Shown: positions 2,202 through 34,185 of the stretch, in pieces
How positions within the stretch are numbered: the first letter of the stretch is position 1
Layout of the letters: the number at the start of each line of letters is the position of its first letter
IMG/VR virus record: IMGVR_UViG_3300025324_000318
Span: 1 to 34,875 of that record
Source: a virus
Length of the DNA: 34,875 bases
Direction: 5' to 3' (one strand)
Position numbers and translations under genes: made by a program
Notes under the pieces: model-generated
Database searches by the model: none
The model's input: the letters and a program-made list of their open reading frames with translations, nothing else
What the model was told of the DNA's origin: nothing

Positions 2202-2738
2202 TCAATACCTTTCAGTTGGAAAATTAAGATGGGCAAAATCGCGATGTGCTTCATAGGCAGCTTTGTCATAGGTACGCGCCGCCTCTTCTTCAGATGCAAA
2301 AACGCCTAGATGGGCTGTTGCTCCATTAATGCGTATTTGCGCCCGCCATTTGTTTACGGCCTTGCTCCAGCTAACGCCCTTAAACTGTGAGCTGAGCCCC
2401 TTGCGAGGTCTGGTGTTCGCCATTTGCTGTCTTCGAGTGGCCCAGCGGCAATTTGACGGTTCGTAGTTGCCGTTGTTATCTCGACGATCCAATTCAAGAT
2501 CATCGCGGTAACCATTGGCCAATGCCCAGTCGCGGAAAGCCTCGTAAGAGTCTCGCCATTCCTGGCAGACAGAAATTCCGCGCGCTCCGTAGTTTCGATA
2601 GGTCGTATTGCTCTTGCAGTAGCACCGCTTTTTCATGGCATTCCAGGCCTGAAACAGTCGCGTTCTAGATTCGCCATGCGTAATACCTCGTAGGTTGCCG
2701 CTCTTGTTTAGAATCACGTTTGTTACTCCGGATGTCAC
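2202..2738 (-). CDS. AP2-domain/HNH-type homing endonuclease-like protein, 178 aa
   Basis: The N-terminal half (about residues 25-112) has the degenerate HNH-type pattern of free-standing phage endonucleases: a WNAMKKRCY helix, YGARGI, a C-x-EW pair, then LELDRRDNNGNYEPSNCRW. The C-terminal half (about 115-175) is an AP2/ERF-type DNA-binding domain, with QFKGVSW opening and EEEAARTYDKAAYEAH helix. AP2-HNH proteins are mobile endonucleases that spread into phage genes. The start is GTG at 2738, overlapping the YqaJ stop (GTGA). The stop at 2202 lies three bases before the recT ATG. The gene thus sits exactly between the two genes of the recombination pair without damaging either. A second, diverged copy of the same architecture sits on the other side of the YqaJ gene. 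Confidence 0.85.
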   Translation of the reverse strand: MTSGVTNVILNKSGNLRGITHGESRTRLFQAWNAMKKRCYCKSNTTYRNYGARGISVCQEWRDSYEAFRDWALANGYRDDLELDRRDNNGNYEPSNCRWATRRQQMANTRPRKGLSSQFKGVSWSKAVNKWRAQIRINGATAHLGVFASEEEAARTYDKAAYEAHRDFAHLNFPTERY

Positions 2739-3688
2739 GATGCGGCGGACACTGCTTTCAACACGATATTCACGCCCTTCGGTAGCGACTTGTGCAGCAG
2801 CAGCCTGCGATCAATACGCGCTTTCACCATGTGCTCTCGAACTGGCACTGTCTTCCATGAAATACAGCGACCATTTGGGGAAATACCGTAGGACGCATCG
2901 CCTAACTTCATGCGCAGGCGGTTGCCTAATTCCAGTTCAGTCGCTTCTAGTTCTTTGATCTGGGACCTGACTTGTTCATAACGCTCTAGAACTTCCTCAT
3001 CTGCCACTCCGAGTGCGATTGCATAATCGCCACTCTGAGGAAACATCCTGTAAATTGCGGCCTTTGTTGCCTCACTTCCGTCCACGGTGGGCGGGATGCG
3101 CGGCACAACGTGGTTCCACCAAAAGTCGTCAATGTGCTTGCGCAGCGTTTGGATAAACTCTTCGTGCCGATCGATCTCGAAGATCCGCACCTGGTCACCG
3201 GTCCAGCCGACGAGATAACCGCGACTGAGGCCAGCGCAAAATAATTGGTGCTGAACTTGAATCGAGTGTTTGAGCGGAGGATTGTTTCCATCCCACTCGC
3301 TCCATGCTTCTCGATTCATGACCATTTTTGCCTCAACGATACGGCGCACGCCCGGCGCTGGCTCGGTGTAGGCATCTACGCTTGCCGCCACATAATTCAA
3401 TTCGTCATGGACGCAGATTGTCGGCTTCTCATTGGTGATGACAGGGAATCCAGTCTCTTGCTCAAACACGGCAAGAACAAATCGCTCCCCGATTTTTCCT
3501 AGATCCAATCGCGCTTGCGTAGATTTTGAGAATCGCGCGTCAGCCTCGCACGTCTTGTCCGCATATACGGACATCTTCGATTGGTTCGCGTACCCATACC
3601 CGAGAATTGCTGGTGCATCACTGGAGCCAATAAAGCGCCGGCGAGCCGCCAACCAATCTTCATGATTGTCAAACGTTAACTGGCTCAT
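2735..3688 (-). CDS. YqaJ-type (lambda exonuclease family) viral recombinase, 317 aa
   Basis: This PD-(D/E)xK exonuclease is predicted to digest one strand of double-stranded ends and load the RecT annealing protein. The YqaJ signature is visible: FIGSSDAPAILG at about residues 19-30, GKIGE with Glu68, SVDAY with Asp105, VEAK with Glu119 and Lys121, then a Gln-rich helix (IQVQHQ at 143-148) that follows the active site in this family. The length fits the family. The ATG at 3688 with GAGGAAG just upstream is preferred; an upstream in-frame start at 3787 would run deep into the preceding AP2 gene. The chosen start overlaps the AP2 stop by 20 bases. It is paired with recT, from which an AP2/HNH gene separates it. 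Confidence 0.87.
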   Translation of the reverse strand: MSQLTFDNHEDWLAARRRFIGSSDAPAILGYGYANQSKMSVYADKTCEADARFSKSTQARLDLGKIGERFVLAVFEQETGFPVITNEKPTICVHDELNYVAASVDAYTEPAPGVRRIVEAKMVMNREAWSEWDGNNPPLKHSIQVQHQLFCAGLSRGYLVGWTGDQVRIFEIDRHEEFIQTLRKHIDDFWWNHVVPRIPPTVDGSEATKAAIYRMFPQSGDYAIALGVADEEVLERYEQVRSQIKELEATELELGNRLRMKLGDASYGISPNGRCISWKTVPVREHMVKARIDRRLLLHKSLPKGVNIVLKAVSAAS

Positions 3689-4319
3689 TGACTTCCTCGG
3701 GGAAATTAAAGAACGTGTCGCCGTAAAGCTCCTTCGCGGCTTTGTCGTATGCACGAGCGGCGGATTCTTCCGTTGGATAGCAGCCAAGATGCCTCATCGT
3801 GCCATTTGCGCTGATCTGCGCGCGCCACTTCTTCTTGCGAGCACCTGGAATGCGAGTTACGCCCTTGAATCGGGAGACTCTCGTTTTCCAGCCTCTGGTG
3901 TTGTGAGCCTGCTGCAGCGCTGTCGCCCAGCGGCAATTAGATGGTTCGTAATGACCGACCTGATTTGGATAGCGATCGATCGTTAAATCATCGGCGTATC
4001 CATGTGACAGGGACCATTCGCGAAAGACGGAGAAATCGTGCCACTCATCACAAATACGAGCACCGAGAGCGCCGCACTTGGCGTATCCTGGAGTCGACTT
4101 GCAATAGCATCGCTGTCGCATGCAGGCCCAGATCCGATAGAGCCGCGTCCCGACTCCACCGTGCTTGAATCCATGGTTCGCGCCTTTGGTGAATCGCGTG
4201 GGCGCACATTGGCGACAGCAATATCTACGCTTCGCCCATTGCGTGCGGTTGTAGCACTTCGCCTTAACGAAGACGTTGCCGCATGTTTCGCATCGCTTAG
4301 ACAGTACGCTGGAGCTCAT
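3669..4319 (-). CDS. Second AP2/HNH homing endonuclease-like protein with N-terminal zinc knuckles, 216 aa
   Basis: It has the same core architecture as the 178-aa AP2 gene at 2.2-2.7 kb. There is an HNH-type region (RLYRIWACMRQRCY, then IDRYPNQ and YEPSNCRWAT) and an AP2-type DNA-binding domain near the C terminus (RFKGVTRIPG, then ESAARAYDKAAKELYG). It has an extra N-terminal zinc-binding stretch of four cysteines (CETC at 10-13 and CCRQC at 34-38). The two copies are clearly related but diverged, so they are not a recent duplication. The ATG at 4319 overlaps the stop of the preceding gene (ATGA) and has GGAGG about ten bases upstream. It is probably a mobile DNA endonuclease; cutting activity is not shown. 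Confidence 0.83.
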   Translation of the reverse strand: MSSSVLSKRCETCGNVFVKAKCYNRTQWAKRRYCCRQCAPTRFTKGANHGFKHGGVGTRLYRIWACMRQRCYCKSTPGYAKCGALGARICDEWHDFSVFREWSLSHGYADDLTIDRYPNQVGHYEPSNCRWATALQQAHNTRGWKTRVSRFKGVTRIPGARKKKWRAQISANGTMRHLGCYPTEESAARAYDKAAKELYGDTFFNFPEEVNEPVNV

Positions 4320-28992: not shown

Positions 28993-29514
28993 CTATTGGG
29001 CTTTCTGGTTGTTGCCAATCTCTTCGAGTTGGACTGGCGGAACATCCTTCTCCTTGAGAATCGCCACCTGCGTGATCGGCCGGTTGCCGCGCGAAAACAT
29101 CCGAACGCGAATCGACAACCGCACCAGCTCGTCATAGCGATTGAACGCTTCGCCGTTTGGGACGTCGCTTGTGACTTGCCAATCTCCGGACTTGTTTTTG
29201 AGCGCAGCTATTAGATCGTGCTGGGACTTCGTATGCCGATCCTTCATGCTAGGTGGCAAGATGGAATTCAGCGGCCGACCCTCCAGTTCCGCCTTGCTCC
29301 AACCAAGAATCCGCGTGGCCTCGTAGTTAGCGAAAGTGATGACGCCCGCTTCGTCGCAGGTGACCACGGCTACCGGCAGCGCATCCATCCGCGCCACGTT
29401 GTCCTGCCGCTCCTCTTCGAGCTGCCCCGCGAAGATCAGCGCGAAAAACAAGGCGCCGATCAGCATCATCCAGGACAAGATCTTGCGGCCGATTTGTTTA
29501 ATTATCTTTGTCAT
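28993..29514 (-). CDS. Membrane-anchored PAS-domain protein, 173 aa
   Basis: One membrane segment at residues 13-30 (SWMMLIGALFFALIFAGQ) is followed by a PAS fold at about 43-155: ARMDALPVAVVTCDEAGVIT, then FANYEATRILGWSKAELEG, the N-x-A-x-x-x-L-G-W signature of PAS repeats, then LPPSM and an RHTKSQHD helix. PAS domains bind cofactors or small ligands and sense light, redox, oxygen or metabolites. Here no kinase or other output domain follows; the C terminus is a short charged tail. The start lies 17 bases inside the end of the holin-like gene and the stop touches the portal ATG. A PAS protein inside the head module is unusual; the ligand is not predictable. Confidence 0.75.
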   Translation of the reverse strand: MTKIIKQIGRKILSWMMLIGALFFALIFAGQLEEERQDNVARMDALPVAVVTCDEAGVITFANYEATRILGWSKAELEGRPLNSILPPSMKDRHTKSQHDLIAALKNKSGDWQVTSDVPNGEAFNRYDELVRLSIRVRMFSRGNRPITQVAILKEKDVPPVQLEEIGNNQKAQ

Positions 29515-31824: not shown

Positions 31825-34185
31825 TTATCTCCCCCTGCGCCGCGCCTCGTCAAGGTAATTTTTGATGCGTTCCATATTCACGCCGTGCCGGTAAGGGTCA
31901 ACGGTCATCTCGGGTCGCAGGATTTCTCCGGCTGGCATGAAGACCGCGTTGGTTGCCAGTTTGTTGAATGCTCCACTGCAGCCGTCCACCTGATCCGTGT
32001 AGGCATATTCAGGAAATGCGCAATTATGTACGAGCACGTCGTTGGCGAAGTATTCTTGGCACTCTTCAACTTGCAGATTGTAGACGTCGCGCAGATTTTC
32101 GAGCATGCGCGGCGCAGAGGCCGCACGAAATGGAGCAATGACATTGCTTGGTGTGGGCTGTGGAGAAGCTAGTTCCGCACCAAGCGCATAATCGGTGATA
32201 AATGATTTTGTGCCCGAGCAATTCTTGGCGTTTATTCGCGCACGGCTTCGAGCACGTAAATGATCGCCCCGGCTGCGGTGTTGAATACTCTTTTCCGCAA
32301 ATTGTGCATGTCTTGGGTATTGCTGCGCCGCGCGGCACGTCTCCGGCGTCCATGTGATGCCTAATGTGGTCTCCGGCGAGCTTGCATTCGAGATTGCCAA
32401 TGACGTTGTTGAGTGTGTCGCCGTCAGTGTGGTGCACATGATGGCCGGGTGGGACACAGCCTTTCTCGCAGATCCACATATACCGATGGAGCTCAAGCAT
32501 CTTTCCGTCAATGTAACCGCTGAAATACCGTTGTTTAGTAAGGGTTTTTGATTCGGGATACCGATAGAAGGCATGGCCCCGGTAAATAGCAACAACTCGT
32601 CGTTTTCCGAAACGTGTTTGATCTTCGTAAAGCCTTTCGACTGCACCCACACGGGATGGTTCGGAGTCGCAATCAGATTGTTGCCGTTTGACAAATCTAG
32701 TTGACATACTTGTGCGTCTCGCTGCGTGAGCCCGGACTTGACAACTTTTTTCCAGCCACTTCGTGTTAATACCAAATCACCCGCTCGAACCTTCTCAATC
32801 GGAATGCCGCCTCGAATAGTCGTAATTATAGTACCTTTTGCAACACATACCTCGTCCAAAAATGGTATCACCCACGATCCGCGGCAAATGCGCACGTTTC
32901 CAATCTCGCACTGAGCCGCGAAAGGCTGTGCCCGCACGATCTTGGCGATGCCCGGCATCTTCATGCCGTCGCGCTTGATCCAGCGCTTGCCGTGGCCCAC
33001 CACGTCGATGTAGCAAGGGAATCCGGCCAGCATCCGCACCATTTGTTGGGCCGCTTCTTTGCCGCCTGATCCTGGCTCCTGCTCGACATAGATGATCACG
33101 CTGTTTTCGTGCCGGCGGGCATCGTTCATGGCCGCTTGCTTGATAACGCGATCGCGATCGGCGGCCGACCACTGTCCGCGTATGACATGCTCGACGTAAT
33201 ACATGCCATCGGTGTCGCGGGCCATGAGCACGCCAGCGGTATAACTTCCTGAGGGTCCCTCGGTCGCAGCGCGGTCCCAATAACGTACTCGAACGCAATC
33301 TTCCGGCGCGCGCTCGACCATGCGGAACCAGTCGCGCTGGAACATCAAGCCTTCCAGATCGACAAACTCCCCGCCAAGTTCCTGCGCGGCCAGGGCGCTC
33401 GAGTAATGGGGTGCGATCAGATCATAGAATTCCGGGGGCAGAAATGGATTCTCGGTAGTGTGCGCGTGAACCAGGAAGCTATTGGGCTTGGGCCGATAGA
33501 ACGCGCCGGCGATCAGTCGGCAATCGTGAAAACCATCAAGTAGCGAACAGCCATCAGTGCCGATCGGCTGGTCCTGCAATCTCTCCTGAATCGATTCCTC
33601 CACCTGCTCGAAAAACGTCTGAAACGTCCAGTGCTGCCGGCCCTTGGGCGTGAACGTCAGCAGGCAGAGACCCATGCGGCCATGAAACCGCAGCACGGCG
33701 ATGCCGATCTTGAAAACATCAGGCGACATGATGCTGGGTTCATCAAGCCACAGGCCGGCTTTCGACGGACCTCGCAATTGTTCGGGCTTGTCGCCGGTTC
33801 GAAACACGATCTCGGCGATGCCCTTGTCCTGTGTGCGGAACTTGATGCGCTGCGGCGGCGACTGCTTGCCGCTGATGAACACGCCGAGCTGCTCCGCCAC
33901 TTCCTTGAACGTTGGATAGGTTGTTTCATCGACCACCGCGTACGTCGGACTGACGCCCATCCACGGTTCGCCGTTGCGAGCGCGCAAACAAATATCGACG
34001 GCCGCGATGCGCGTTTTTCCCGCGCCGCGGCCGGCTACGAAGCCCCTAACCCAGGCATTCGAATCGCGAAACAGCTTTTGCTTTCGCGAAACCGACACGC
34101 AGCGCAGATTCTTTGTGGGACTGATCATTGTTATTACCCAGCATGGCCGGGTGGAACGCCGCTCGACCCTATAAATCCGTGCCAC
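31825..34185 (-). CDS. terL: Large terminase subunit (packaging ATPase-nuclease) interrupted by an intein, 786 aa
   Basis: The packaging motor ATPase motifs are clear: Walker A GRGAGKT at residues 52-58, Walker B GLWLDEPS with Asp148-Glu149 and motif III LLTFTPKG near 176-182. The nuclease domain has Asp304 in RYWDRA, Glu368 or Glu370 in YVEQEPGSGG, and a last acidic motif, YTDQVDG, at about 729-735. A Cys447-Asn721 intein of 275 residues lies just before the last motif, at EV-C/AFPEY; removing it leaves 511 residues, a normal TerL size. The GTG at 34185 follows the 28-aa stop directly; an ATG at 34128 is an alternative. The gene follows terS. The intein interrupts a conserved nuclease-site region, as is usual for inteins. 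Confidence 0.88.
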   Translation of the reverse strand: MARIYRVERRSTRPCWVITMISPTKNLRCVSVSRKQKLFRDSNAWVRGFVAGRGAGKTRIAAVDICLRARNGEPWMGVSPTYAVVDETTYPTFKEVAEQLGVFISGKQSPPQRIKFRTQDKGIAEIVFRTGDKPEQLRGPSKAGLWLDEPSIMSPDVFKIGIAVLRFHGRMGLCLLTFTPKGRQHWTFQTFFEQVEESIQERLQDQPIGTDGCSLLDGFHDCRLIAGAFYRPKPNSFLVHAHTTENPFLPPEFYDLIAPHYSSALAAQELGGEFVDLEGLMFQRDWFRMVERAPEDCVRVRYWDRAATEGPSGSYTAGVLMARDTDGMYYVEHVIRGQWSAADRDRVIKQAAMNDARRHENSVIIYVEQEPGSGGKEAAQQMVRMLAGFPCYIDVVGHGKRWIKRDGMKMPGIAKIVRAQPFAAQCEIGNVRICRGSWVIPFLDEVCVAKGTIITTIRGGIPIEKVRAGDLVLTRSGWKKVVKSGLTQRDAQVCQLDLSNGNNLIATPNHPVWVQSKGFTKIKHVSENDELLLFTGAMPSIGIPNQKPLLNNGISAVTLTERCLSSIGICGSARKAVSHPAIMCTTLTATHSTTSLAISNASSPETTLGITWTPETCRAAQQYPRHAQFAEKSIQHRSRGDHLRARSRARINAKNCSGTKSFITDYALGAELASPQPTPSNVIAPFRAASAPRMLENLRDVYNLQVEECQEYFANDVLVHNCAFPEYAYTDQVDGCSGAFNKLATNAVFMPAGEILRPEMTVDPYRHGVNMERIKNYLDEARRRGR
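32023..32847 (-). mobile_element. Intein in the terminase gene (275 aa) with HNH gene in another frame
   Basis: The terminase frame shows all splicing blocks: Cys447 as the first residue (CVAKGTIITTI), block B as NNLIATPNHPVW with TPNH at 507-510, and a C-terminal block F/G of VYNLQVEECQEYFANDVLVHN ending His-Asn, followed by Cys as the +1 residue. These are the residues needed for Hint-type protein splicing. The linker between the two halves, about residues 540-695, lacks a homing endonuclease in this frame and looks like a random translation, yet it has no stop codon. The true endonuclease is coded in the -1 frame. The intein can still be made as one 275-aa unit, with a linker of unusual composition. 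Confidence 0.85.
32066..32707 (-). CDS. HNH homing endonuclease nested in the intein in the -1 frame, 213 aa
   Basis: This frame, one base 5' of the terminase codon frame, codes a normal-looking endonuclease. From about residue 41 it reads IYRGHAFYRYPES, then LHRYMWICEKG, then the HNH core HHVHHTDGDTLNNVIGNL (89-106) with HIRHH at 114-118. Two zinc knuckles follow (Cys134, Cys137, Cys152, Cys156; and Cys174, Cys177, Cys189, Cys191/Cys195). HNH enzymes nick or cut DNA to spread the intein. Residues 1-40 overlap the Hint N-terminal coding and look like a shadow. The stop falls inside the C-terminal splicing block. The ATG at 32707 has a weak ribosome site, so start by reinitiation, a -1 shift, or two compensating indels are all possible. 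Confidence 0.75.
   Translation of the reverse strand: MSTRFVKRQQSDCDSEPSRVGAVERLYEDQTRFGKRRVVAIYRGHAFYRYPESKTLTKQRYFSGYIDGKMLELHRYMWICEKGCVPPGHHVHHTDGDTLNNVIGNLECKLAGDHIRHHMDAGDVPRGAAIPKTCTICGKEYSTPQPGRSFTCSKPCANKRQELLGHKIIYHRLCAWCGTSFSTAHTKQCHCSISCGLCAAHARKSARRLQSAS

What the first reader, a model, noticed from the sequence alone, without database searches (positions are those of the whole stretch)
32023..32847. Intein whose HNH endonuclease lies in the -1 frame between in-frame splicing halves
In the terminase frame both splicing halves are intact (Cys447, TPNH at 507-510, C-terminal His-Asn, +1 Cys), while the middle is an apparently meaningless but stop-free linker. In the -1 frame the same bases code a complete HNH enzyme with two zinc knuckles. 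Normally an intein endonuclease is in frame with the splicing domain. This could be a gene inside a gene, in which an HNH gene invaded a mini-intein out of frame while selection kept the host frame open. If real, one DNA stretch codes a spliced linker and a separate endonuclease. Chance openness cannot be excluded, because long antisense open frames occur elsewhere in this window, and paired indels could also explain it.
Basis: partly seen in the sequence, partly recalled or inferred. Interest (0 to 1): 0.85.

Follow-up and report, generated by a model that had tools for sequence, protein, structure and literature searches.

The report
Endonuclease gene hidden inside an intein
In this phage's DNA-packaging gene, a self-splicing protein insert (an intein) and a separate DNA-cutting enzyme are encoded by the same bases in two different reading frames, and more than a hundred other phage sequences use the same arrangement, so it is a selected and apparently overlooked form of mobile intein rather than an accident.

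Summary
Confirmed, and far more general than the single window. The large terminase (31825-34185, minus strand) holds a 275-residue intein (32023-32847) with intact splicing halves. The same DNA carries an HNH_3/zinc-knuckle endonuclease in the -1 frame (32066-32650 or 32707). For the window alone, chance openness of the linker is not excluded (P = 0.054). Relatives settle it: 209 loci (128 clusters below 80% DNA identity) have the HNH in the same -1 frame inside an open intein. In the first set, 93 of 94 clusters have no stop in the intein frame (about 216 expected with synonymous codons shuffled), while the third frame has the expected number. All 30 free-standing or split relatives carry stops there. 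The HNH start codon is conserved, substitutions follow the HNH frame, and AlphaFold folds the two Hint halves and the HNH but not the linker. Acinetobacter phage Highwayman against the intein-free Acba_21 shows a precise 327-codon insertion ringed by a co-conversion-like footprint. Other nucleases (DUF559, another HNH) sit in the +1 frame of inteins in phage helicases, TerL and DnaX, so the arrangement arose more than once. Expression, splicing and cutting are inferred. Closest precedent: the 'ShiLan' out-of-frame HNH, which has no intein.

The parts
31825..34185 (-). Terminase large subunit ORF containing the intein (786 aa; 511 aa after predicted splicing)
   Evidence: Pfam Terminase_6N 2.7e-10, Terminase_6C 2.9e-4; open throughout
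32848..34185 (-). N-extein (TerL residues 1-446, ending ...FLDEV)
   Evidence: sequence; insertion site of the kind seen in L193, L221, L223
32023..32847 (-). Intein, 275 aa (Cys1 ... His274-Asn275)
   Evidence: Pfam Intein_splicing, Hint_2, TIGR01443; C1, T61, H64 and N275 invariant in the relatives
32578..32847 (-). N-terminal splicing half (intein residues 1-90)
   Evidence: AlphaFold mean pLDDT about 97; Hint fold matches gp41-1
32143..32577 (-). Stop-free linker of the intein frame (intein residues 91-235)
   Evidence: mean pLDDT about 48, no secondary structure
32023..32142 (-). C-terminal splicing half (intein residues 236-275)
   Evidence: pLDDT 96-98; TIGR01443 intein_Cterm above cut-off
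32066..32707 (-). Nested HNH endonuclease gene in the -1 frame (start ATG 32707, or GTG 32650 at the V-W position also used by L210 and L256)
   Evidence: HNH_3 7.2e-10; AlphaFold pLDDT 91; starts
32384..32491 (-). HNH_3 catalytic core (HHVHHTDGDTLNN...)
   Evidence: Pfam match residues 73-108 of the ORF; invariant H73, H74, N82, N86 in 194-aa numbering
32240..32308 (-). First zinc knuckle (CTIC...CSKPC)
   Evidence: C115, C118, C133, C137 invariant in the 49-row alignment
32123..32188 (-). Second zinc knuckle (CAWC...CHCSISC)
   Evidence: sequence; knuckle conserved in most relatives
31825..32022 (-). C-extein, starting with +1 Cys (CAFPEYAYTDQVDG...)
   Evidence: sequence; TerL nuclease motif region

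Best explanation
A cis-splicing intein sits in the terminase gene. The loop of its splicing domain, the usual endonuclease site, holds an autonomous HNH homing-endonuclease gene in the -1 frame. Ribosomes reading the terminase frame pass through the HNH gene as a meaningless, disordered linker, and the two intein halves fold together and splice out a normal terminase. Other ribosomes start at an internal start codon and make the HNH enzyme separately. The enzyme cuts intein-free terminase alleles and so copies the whole element. Purifying selection acts on the HNH frame across the overlap. In the intein frame it acts on the two halves, and on the linker mainly to avoid stop codons. Shown by computation: anatomy, recurrence, stop avoidance, start-codon conservation, HNH-frame selection, one precise empty site with a co-conversion-like footprint. 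Inferred: translation of the HNH, splicing, target cutting.
For: Intein and HNH intact in the two frames. 209 loci / 128 clusters with the same -1 relation. Intein-frame stops: none in 93 of 94 clusters against about 216 expected; third frame 1976 vs 1965; 127 of 128 clusters. All 30 free-standing or split homologues carry stops, at the expected numbers. An HNH-only scan and a linker-free intein scan (53 nested inteins among 80 loci, none in frame) give the same picture. ATG ahead of the HNH domain in 114 of 128 against 40 in the third frame; Shine-Dalgarno enrichment p = 1.7e-8 in the near-start group; conserved NNA-TGG start with GGA in 26 of 27 glycines (background 37%) in the far-start group. 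Substitutions 505/428/925 by HNH codon position; HNH identity above linker identity in 23 of 23 pairs. Highwayman vs Acba_21: 432/434 residues identical after removing 327 codons; all 15 differences within -163..+12 nt of the site.
Against: No expression, splicing or cleavage data. In the window itself the Shine-Dalgarno is weak and the start uncertain, the HNH lacks the WHxSxEGxxWH segment, and its own P is only 0.054. Loci within clusters and clades are not independent. The HNH tree is poorly resolved and mixes nested, free and split genes.
Confidence: 0.88

Rival explanations
1. Programmed -1 ribosomal frameshifting in the intein produces an IntN-HNH fusion; there is no internal start.
For: The frame offset is constant (-1) in the HNH_3 lineage, and the window HNH frame is open about 200 nt upstream.
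Against: Most relatives have an HNH-frame stop a few dozen nt before the domain, followed by an ATG. ATG is conserved while the overlapping residue changes. XXXYYYZ heptamers are not enriched in the intein phase (24 vs 21 and 13). The other lineages use the +1 frame.
Confidence: 0.05
2. Chance openness: the HNH frame is real and the terminase frame merely happens to be open, or the open frame is an assembly or indel artefact of an in-frame HNH intein.
For: For the window alone P = 0.054; a GC-rich genome has long spurious ORFs.
Against: 93 of 94 and 127 of 128 clusters have no stop while free-standing homologues carry 1-16. Present in isolate genomes from several laboratories. No in-frame version of this HNH_3 family was found.
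Confidence: 0.02
3. The intein is in practice a split intein: terminase fragments are made separately and trans-splice, the HNH being free-standing between them.
For: Relatives with real stops exist: L005 and L007 (14 stops), L160, L174, L178, and L160 has an ATG for IntC.
Against: The window and 209 loci have both halves in one uninterrupted frame, which would be needless if trans-splicing were the rule.
Confidence: 0.03
4. The nested HNH serves terminase-dependent DNA packaging rather than homing, as HK97 gp74 does.
For: Free-standing relatives lie beside terL; PMC10448857 discusses HK97-type HNH proteins that aid the terminase.
Against: Sporadic presence among near-identical phages with a co-conversion-like footprint, many insertion sites, closest solved structure the homing enzyme I-HmuI.
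Confidence: 0.06

Closest known systems
ShiLan-type insertion with out-of-frame HNH in phage DNA methylase (Arsenault, Gosselin and Gogarten 2025, PMC11855218; also phage Applejack, PMC12613952)
   Same: HNH/zinc-finger endonuclease hidden out of frame in a phage gene whose own frame stays open; proposed internal start; mobile distribution
   Different: ShiLan has no detectable splicing domain and is thought to remain in the methylase; here the hidden HNH lies inside a recognisable intein with intact splicing residues
Cis-splicing intein with in-frame homing endonuclease (reviewed in PMC8966425)
   Same: Hint splicing domain with an endonuclease in the usual loop, inserted in a conserved host-protein site
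   Different: the endonuclease is a separate overlapping gene in another frame, so the linker made with the host protein is not the enzyme
Fractured genes / split inteins with a free-standing HEG between halves (AceL NrdHF, PMC7891396)
   Same: IntN - HEG - IntC order, HEG with its own start and stop
   Different: both intein halves remain in one open frame here; split forms do occur among relatives (L005, L160)
Collaborative homing of introns with free-standing HEGs (PMC2988022, PMC10448857)
   Same: free-standing relatives of this HNH lie just 3' of terL, near the main intein site
   Different: known for group I introns; here it is proposed for inteins as a route of HEG acquisition and is untested
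I-HmuI HNH homing endonuclease (PDB 1u3e)
   Same: best sequence and fold match of the HNH
   Different: intron-encoded; only about 18% identity, and the match is weak (E = 4e-4 by profile, 4e-3 by fold)

Membership tests
Class 1 intein | N-terminal Cys/Ser nucleophile, block B TxxH, C-terminal (H)N, +1 Cys/Ser/Thr | tested here: met
   Cys1, TPNH at 61-64, HN275, +1 Cys; C1, T61, H64, N275 invariant in the 49-row alignment
Class 1 intein | Hint (HINT) fold | tested here: met
   AlphaFold halves pLDDT about 97; Foldseek gp41-1 2.5e-6
Class 1 intein | Actual protein splicing | not testable with these tools
   only indirect: removing the 327 predicted codons from Highwayman terL gives the length of the 434-aa TerL of intein-free Acba_21, 432/434 identical
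Intein with in-frame homing endonuclease domain | endonuclease domain in the same reading frame as the splicing domain | tested here: not met
   HNH is in the -1 frame; the in-frame linker is unfolded
HNH_3 / I-HmuI-like homing endonuclease | HNH_3 domain above the curated cut-off with conserved H, N, H | tested here: met
   39 bits vs cut-off 24.8; all 50 members match; invariant residues
HNH_3 / I-HmuI-like homing endonuclease | site-specific cleavage of the empty allele | not testable with these tools
   indirect co-conversion-like footprint in a relative
Split intein / fractured gene | IntN and IntC on separate ORFs | tested here: not met
   one 786-aa ORF in the window; met in L005, L007 and L160
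ShiLan-type hidden HNH insertion | no intein or intron signature in the insertion | tested here: not met
   intact intein; no Rfam intron in the window
Programmed -1 frameshift element | slippery heptamer in the zero frame before the overlap | tested here: not met
   no enrichment in relatives

The most novel reading that the evidence does not exclude
Out-of-frame nested endonuclease genes are a general, previously unrecognised class of mobile inteins: several nuclease families, both frame offsets, in terminase, helicase and DnaX. They mark a route by which inteins acquire endonucleases: an autonomous HEG that already targets the intein site jumps into the mini-intein loop, settles in the frame where fewest stops must be removed, and can later resolve to a split intein or back to a free-standing HEG.
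Probability: 0.5. Interest if true: 0.9.

Novelty: new variant of a known kind. Interest (0 to 1): 0.82.

Why it matters
It shows a widespread case of the same DNA coding both a protein-splicing linker and a separate enzyme. It suggests an answer to the open question of how inteins gain endonucleases without first making an in-frame fusion. It explains many 'junk' insertions in phage terminase annotations. It adds a large natural set of overlapping genes in which one frame is selected for a folded protein and the other mainly to stay open. It also yields many new candidate cis-splicing inteins that appear to tolerate long, unstructured, variable linkers.

Tried and rejected
Single-protein scans for close relatives of the window found none, as did a DNA search in phages. 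Ribosomal frameshifting: no slippery-site enrichment. Group I intron or other RNA element: no Rfam hit in the window. Shine-Dalgarno as a universal start signal: not enriched over all loci, only in the near-start group. HNH phylogeny to count origins: supports too weak. Hidden in-frame versions of this HNH in inteins: none found. Literature: ten searches in the open-access library found no out-of-frame HEG inside a recognised intein; subscription papers and preprints not held could contain one.

Full report
WHAT IS IN THE WINDOW. The window is a whole IMG/VR virus record. On the minus strand at 31825-34185 lies a terminase large subunit of 786 aa (Pfam Terminase_6N 2.7e-10). It is interrupted by a 275-residue intein at 32847-32023: Cys447 (intein residue 1), the block B motif TPNH at 507-510, a C-terminal His-Asn and a +1 Cys. 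In the -1 frame of the same DNA, ORF 32066-32707 codes an HNH_3 endonuclease (7.2e-10) with two zinc knuckles. AlphaFold with 48 relatives gives mean pLDDT near 97 for intein residues 1-90 and 240-275. The linker (91-235) is about 48 with no secondary structure. The other frame of the same bases gives a folded HNH protein with pLDDT 91. Foldseek places the intein model on gp41-1 (2.5e-6) and the HNH model on I-HmuI (E = 4e-3, probability 0.98). The profile searches against the PDB agree.

IS IT MORE THAN CHANCE? For the window alone, shuffling synonymous codons while keeping the HNH protein and its codon counts leaves the intein frame open with P = 0.054. One sequence therefore cannot decide. 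Relatives do. A tblastn of the HNH against phages hit four other terminase genes that turned out to have the same layout, with the HNH in the -1 frame of an open terminase-intein frame: Acinetobacter phage Highwayman, Tetrasphaera phage TJE1, a Rhodobacteraceae phage and a human faecal phage. Three scans of viral contigs, one of genomes and HMM mapping gave 209 loci, 128 clusters below 80% DNA identity, all with IntN and IntC in one open frame and the HNH in -1. The second scan used only the HNH and the third only the two splicing halves, so neither could favour open linkers. In the third, 53 inteins among 80 loci are nested; the rest are mini-inteins, inteins with in-frame nucleases, or the +1 cases below. 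No in-frame copy of this HNH family was seen.

STOP AVOIDANCE. In the first 94 clusters the intein frame across the HNH has no stop in 93; about 216 were expected. The third frame has 1976 stops, 1965 expected. In the larger set, 127 of 128 clusters have none (267 expected; the exception, probably L158, is truncated at a contig end). Thirty homologues that are free-standing or lie between split intein halves all have 1-16 stops in that frame, at about the numbers expected from their codons. Openness of the frame is therefore a property of being inside a cis-splicing intein. Members of a clade are not independent, but the effect does not rest on any one clade.

HOW THE HNH IS MADE. In 114 of 128 clusters an ATG (125 with GTG or TTG) lies between the last HNH-frame stop and the HNH domain; 40 have an ATG in the third frame over the same windows, and 48.5 are expected from base composition. 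Where the start is close to the domain, 42% have a strong Shine-Dalgarno pairing against 15% of internal ATGs (p = 1.7e-8). In a second group the ATG is formed by the last base of one intein codon and the following Trp or Cys codon. There the preceding residue varies (Gly, Glu, Lys, Ser, Thr, Val) but its codon almost always ends in A; 26 of 27 glycines use GGA against 37% in the background. This is what selection for a start codon looks like. Slippery heptamers are not enriched. For the window, ATG 32707 and GTG 32650 are candidates; the latter occupies the V-W position also used by L210 and L256.

SELECTION. In 23 disjoint pairs of relatives (some pairs are near-copies of others), substitutions in the overlap fall 505/428/925 on HNH codon positions 1/2/3, and HNH identity exceeds linker identity in every pair. 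In the splicing halves, positions of the intein frame show the expected third-position excess (145/103/351 and 31/16/128). The HNH is the constrained protein in the overlap; the linker mainly stays open.

MOBILITY. Highwayman terL minus the 327 predicted intein codons is 434 codons, exactly the length of terL in the intein-free phage Acba_21, with 432 of 434 residues identical. All 15 nucleotide differences in 1302 lie between -163 and +12 of the insertion point, ten of them within 25 nt. This is the footprint expected from homing with co-conversion of flanking DNA. Insertion sites are many: most at DxxNH|CxDAxRY of TerL, others at the Walker-B region, at nuclease motif I, or at LDE.|C as in the window. 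L085 has two nested inteins in one terminase. Free-standing relatives sit next to terL, or close to it, in Exiguobacterium, Sphaerotilus, Pseudomonas, Lactobacillus, Acinetobacter and Salmonella phages, and L105, L110, L139 and L145 start within tens of nucleotides of the terL end, near the main intein site.

NOT ONLY THIS FAMILY. Two further nested types use the +1 frame. L252 (TerL, HNH of another type) and L248 (DnaX, DUF559 nuclease) have no intein-frame stop where about 11 are expected, P < 1/2000 each. Following them up led to isolates: Gordonia phage Clown and Synechococcus phage S-EIVl (TerL), and Vibrio CP-T1, Corynebacterium phi673, Pseudomonas MR14 and Vibrio 1.194.O (helicase). All have intein signatures in the host frame and zinc-knuckle HNH or DUF559 nucleases in +1, with no stops against 3.9-16.7 expected. 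The arrangement has arisen more than once.

WHY OUT OF FRAME (INFERENCE). A HEG that arrives with its own start and stop cannot be in frame without losing its stop codon; out of frame, only the stops of one alternative frame must be removed. In free-standing HNH_3 genes the frame actually used has, as a rule, the fewer stops of the two. Split forms (L005, L007, L160, L174, L178) may be the same event without that clean-up, or later decay.

KNOWN OR NEW. The nearest report is the ShiLan domain, an out-of-frame HNH in a phage methylase without any splicing domain (PMC11855218). Inteins with in-frame endonucleases, split inteins with free-standing HEGs (PMC7891396) and collaborative homing for introns (PMC2988022, PMC10448857) are known. 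Ten searches of the open-access library found no out-of-frame HEG inside a true intein; absence there is not proof of novelty. I file it as a new variant of a known kind.

LIMITS. No experiment shows expression, splicing or cutting. The window copy has a divergent HNH lacking the WHxSxEGxxWH segment, so its own endonuclease may be weakened. The HNH tree is too poorly resolved to count origins within the -1 family.

Noticed in passing
L248 3501-4586; L252 3501-4538; L276, L277, L278, L279, L280, L281: Independent intein lineages with DUF559 or other zinc-knuckle HNH endonucleases in the +1 frame, in DnaX, TerL and helicase genes, several in isolated phages.
   Followed up: partly
L005/L007 2699-3811; L131 2646-3685; L154 2621-3640; L160 2633-3611; L171; L174; L178: Relatives in which stops or a frame change separate IntN from IntC, with the HNH between; candidate split inteins. 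In L131 and L154 the IntC frame overlaps the HNH gene and IntC has no obvious start.
   Followed up: partly
L085 1789-2730 and 3094-4260: One terminase gene with two inteins, each carrying its own nested -1 frame HNH; the second has a partly duplicated HNH.
   Followed up: no
L124 and L132 (intein over 400 aa): Nested inteins in which part of the HNH protein appears duplicated, lengthening the linker by about 90 codons with no stop in the intein frame.
   Followed up: no
window 2202-2738 (-) and 3669-4319 (-): Two similar genes with C-terminal AP2-like domains (below the Pfam cut-off), possibly free-standing AP2-type homing endonucleases, flanking a YqaJ-like gene.
   Followed up: partly
L270 (Highwayman) against L269 (Acba_21), terL: Near-identical phages differing by a precise intein insertion; all 15 SNPs in terL cluster within -163..+12 nt of the site, a good natural system for measuring co-conversion.
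   Followed up: yes
window 28993-29514 (-): PAS-domain protein with an N-terminal hydrophobic segment, lying between the terminase and the Mu-type portal gene; unusual cargo for a morphogenesis module.
   Followed up: no
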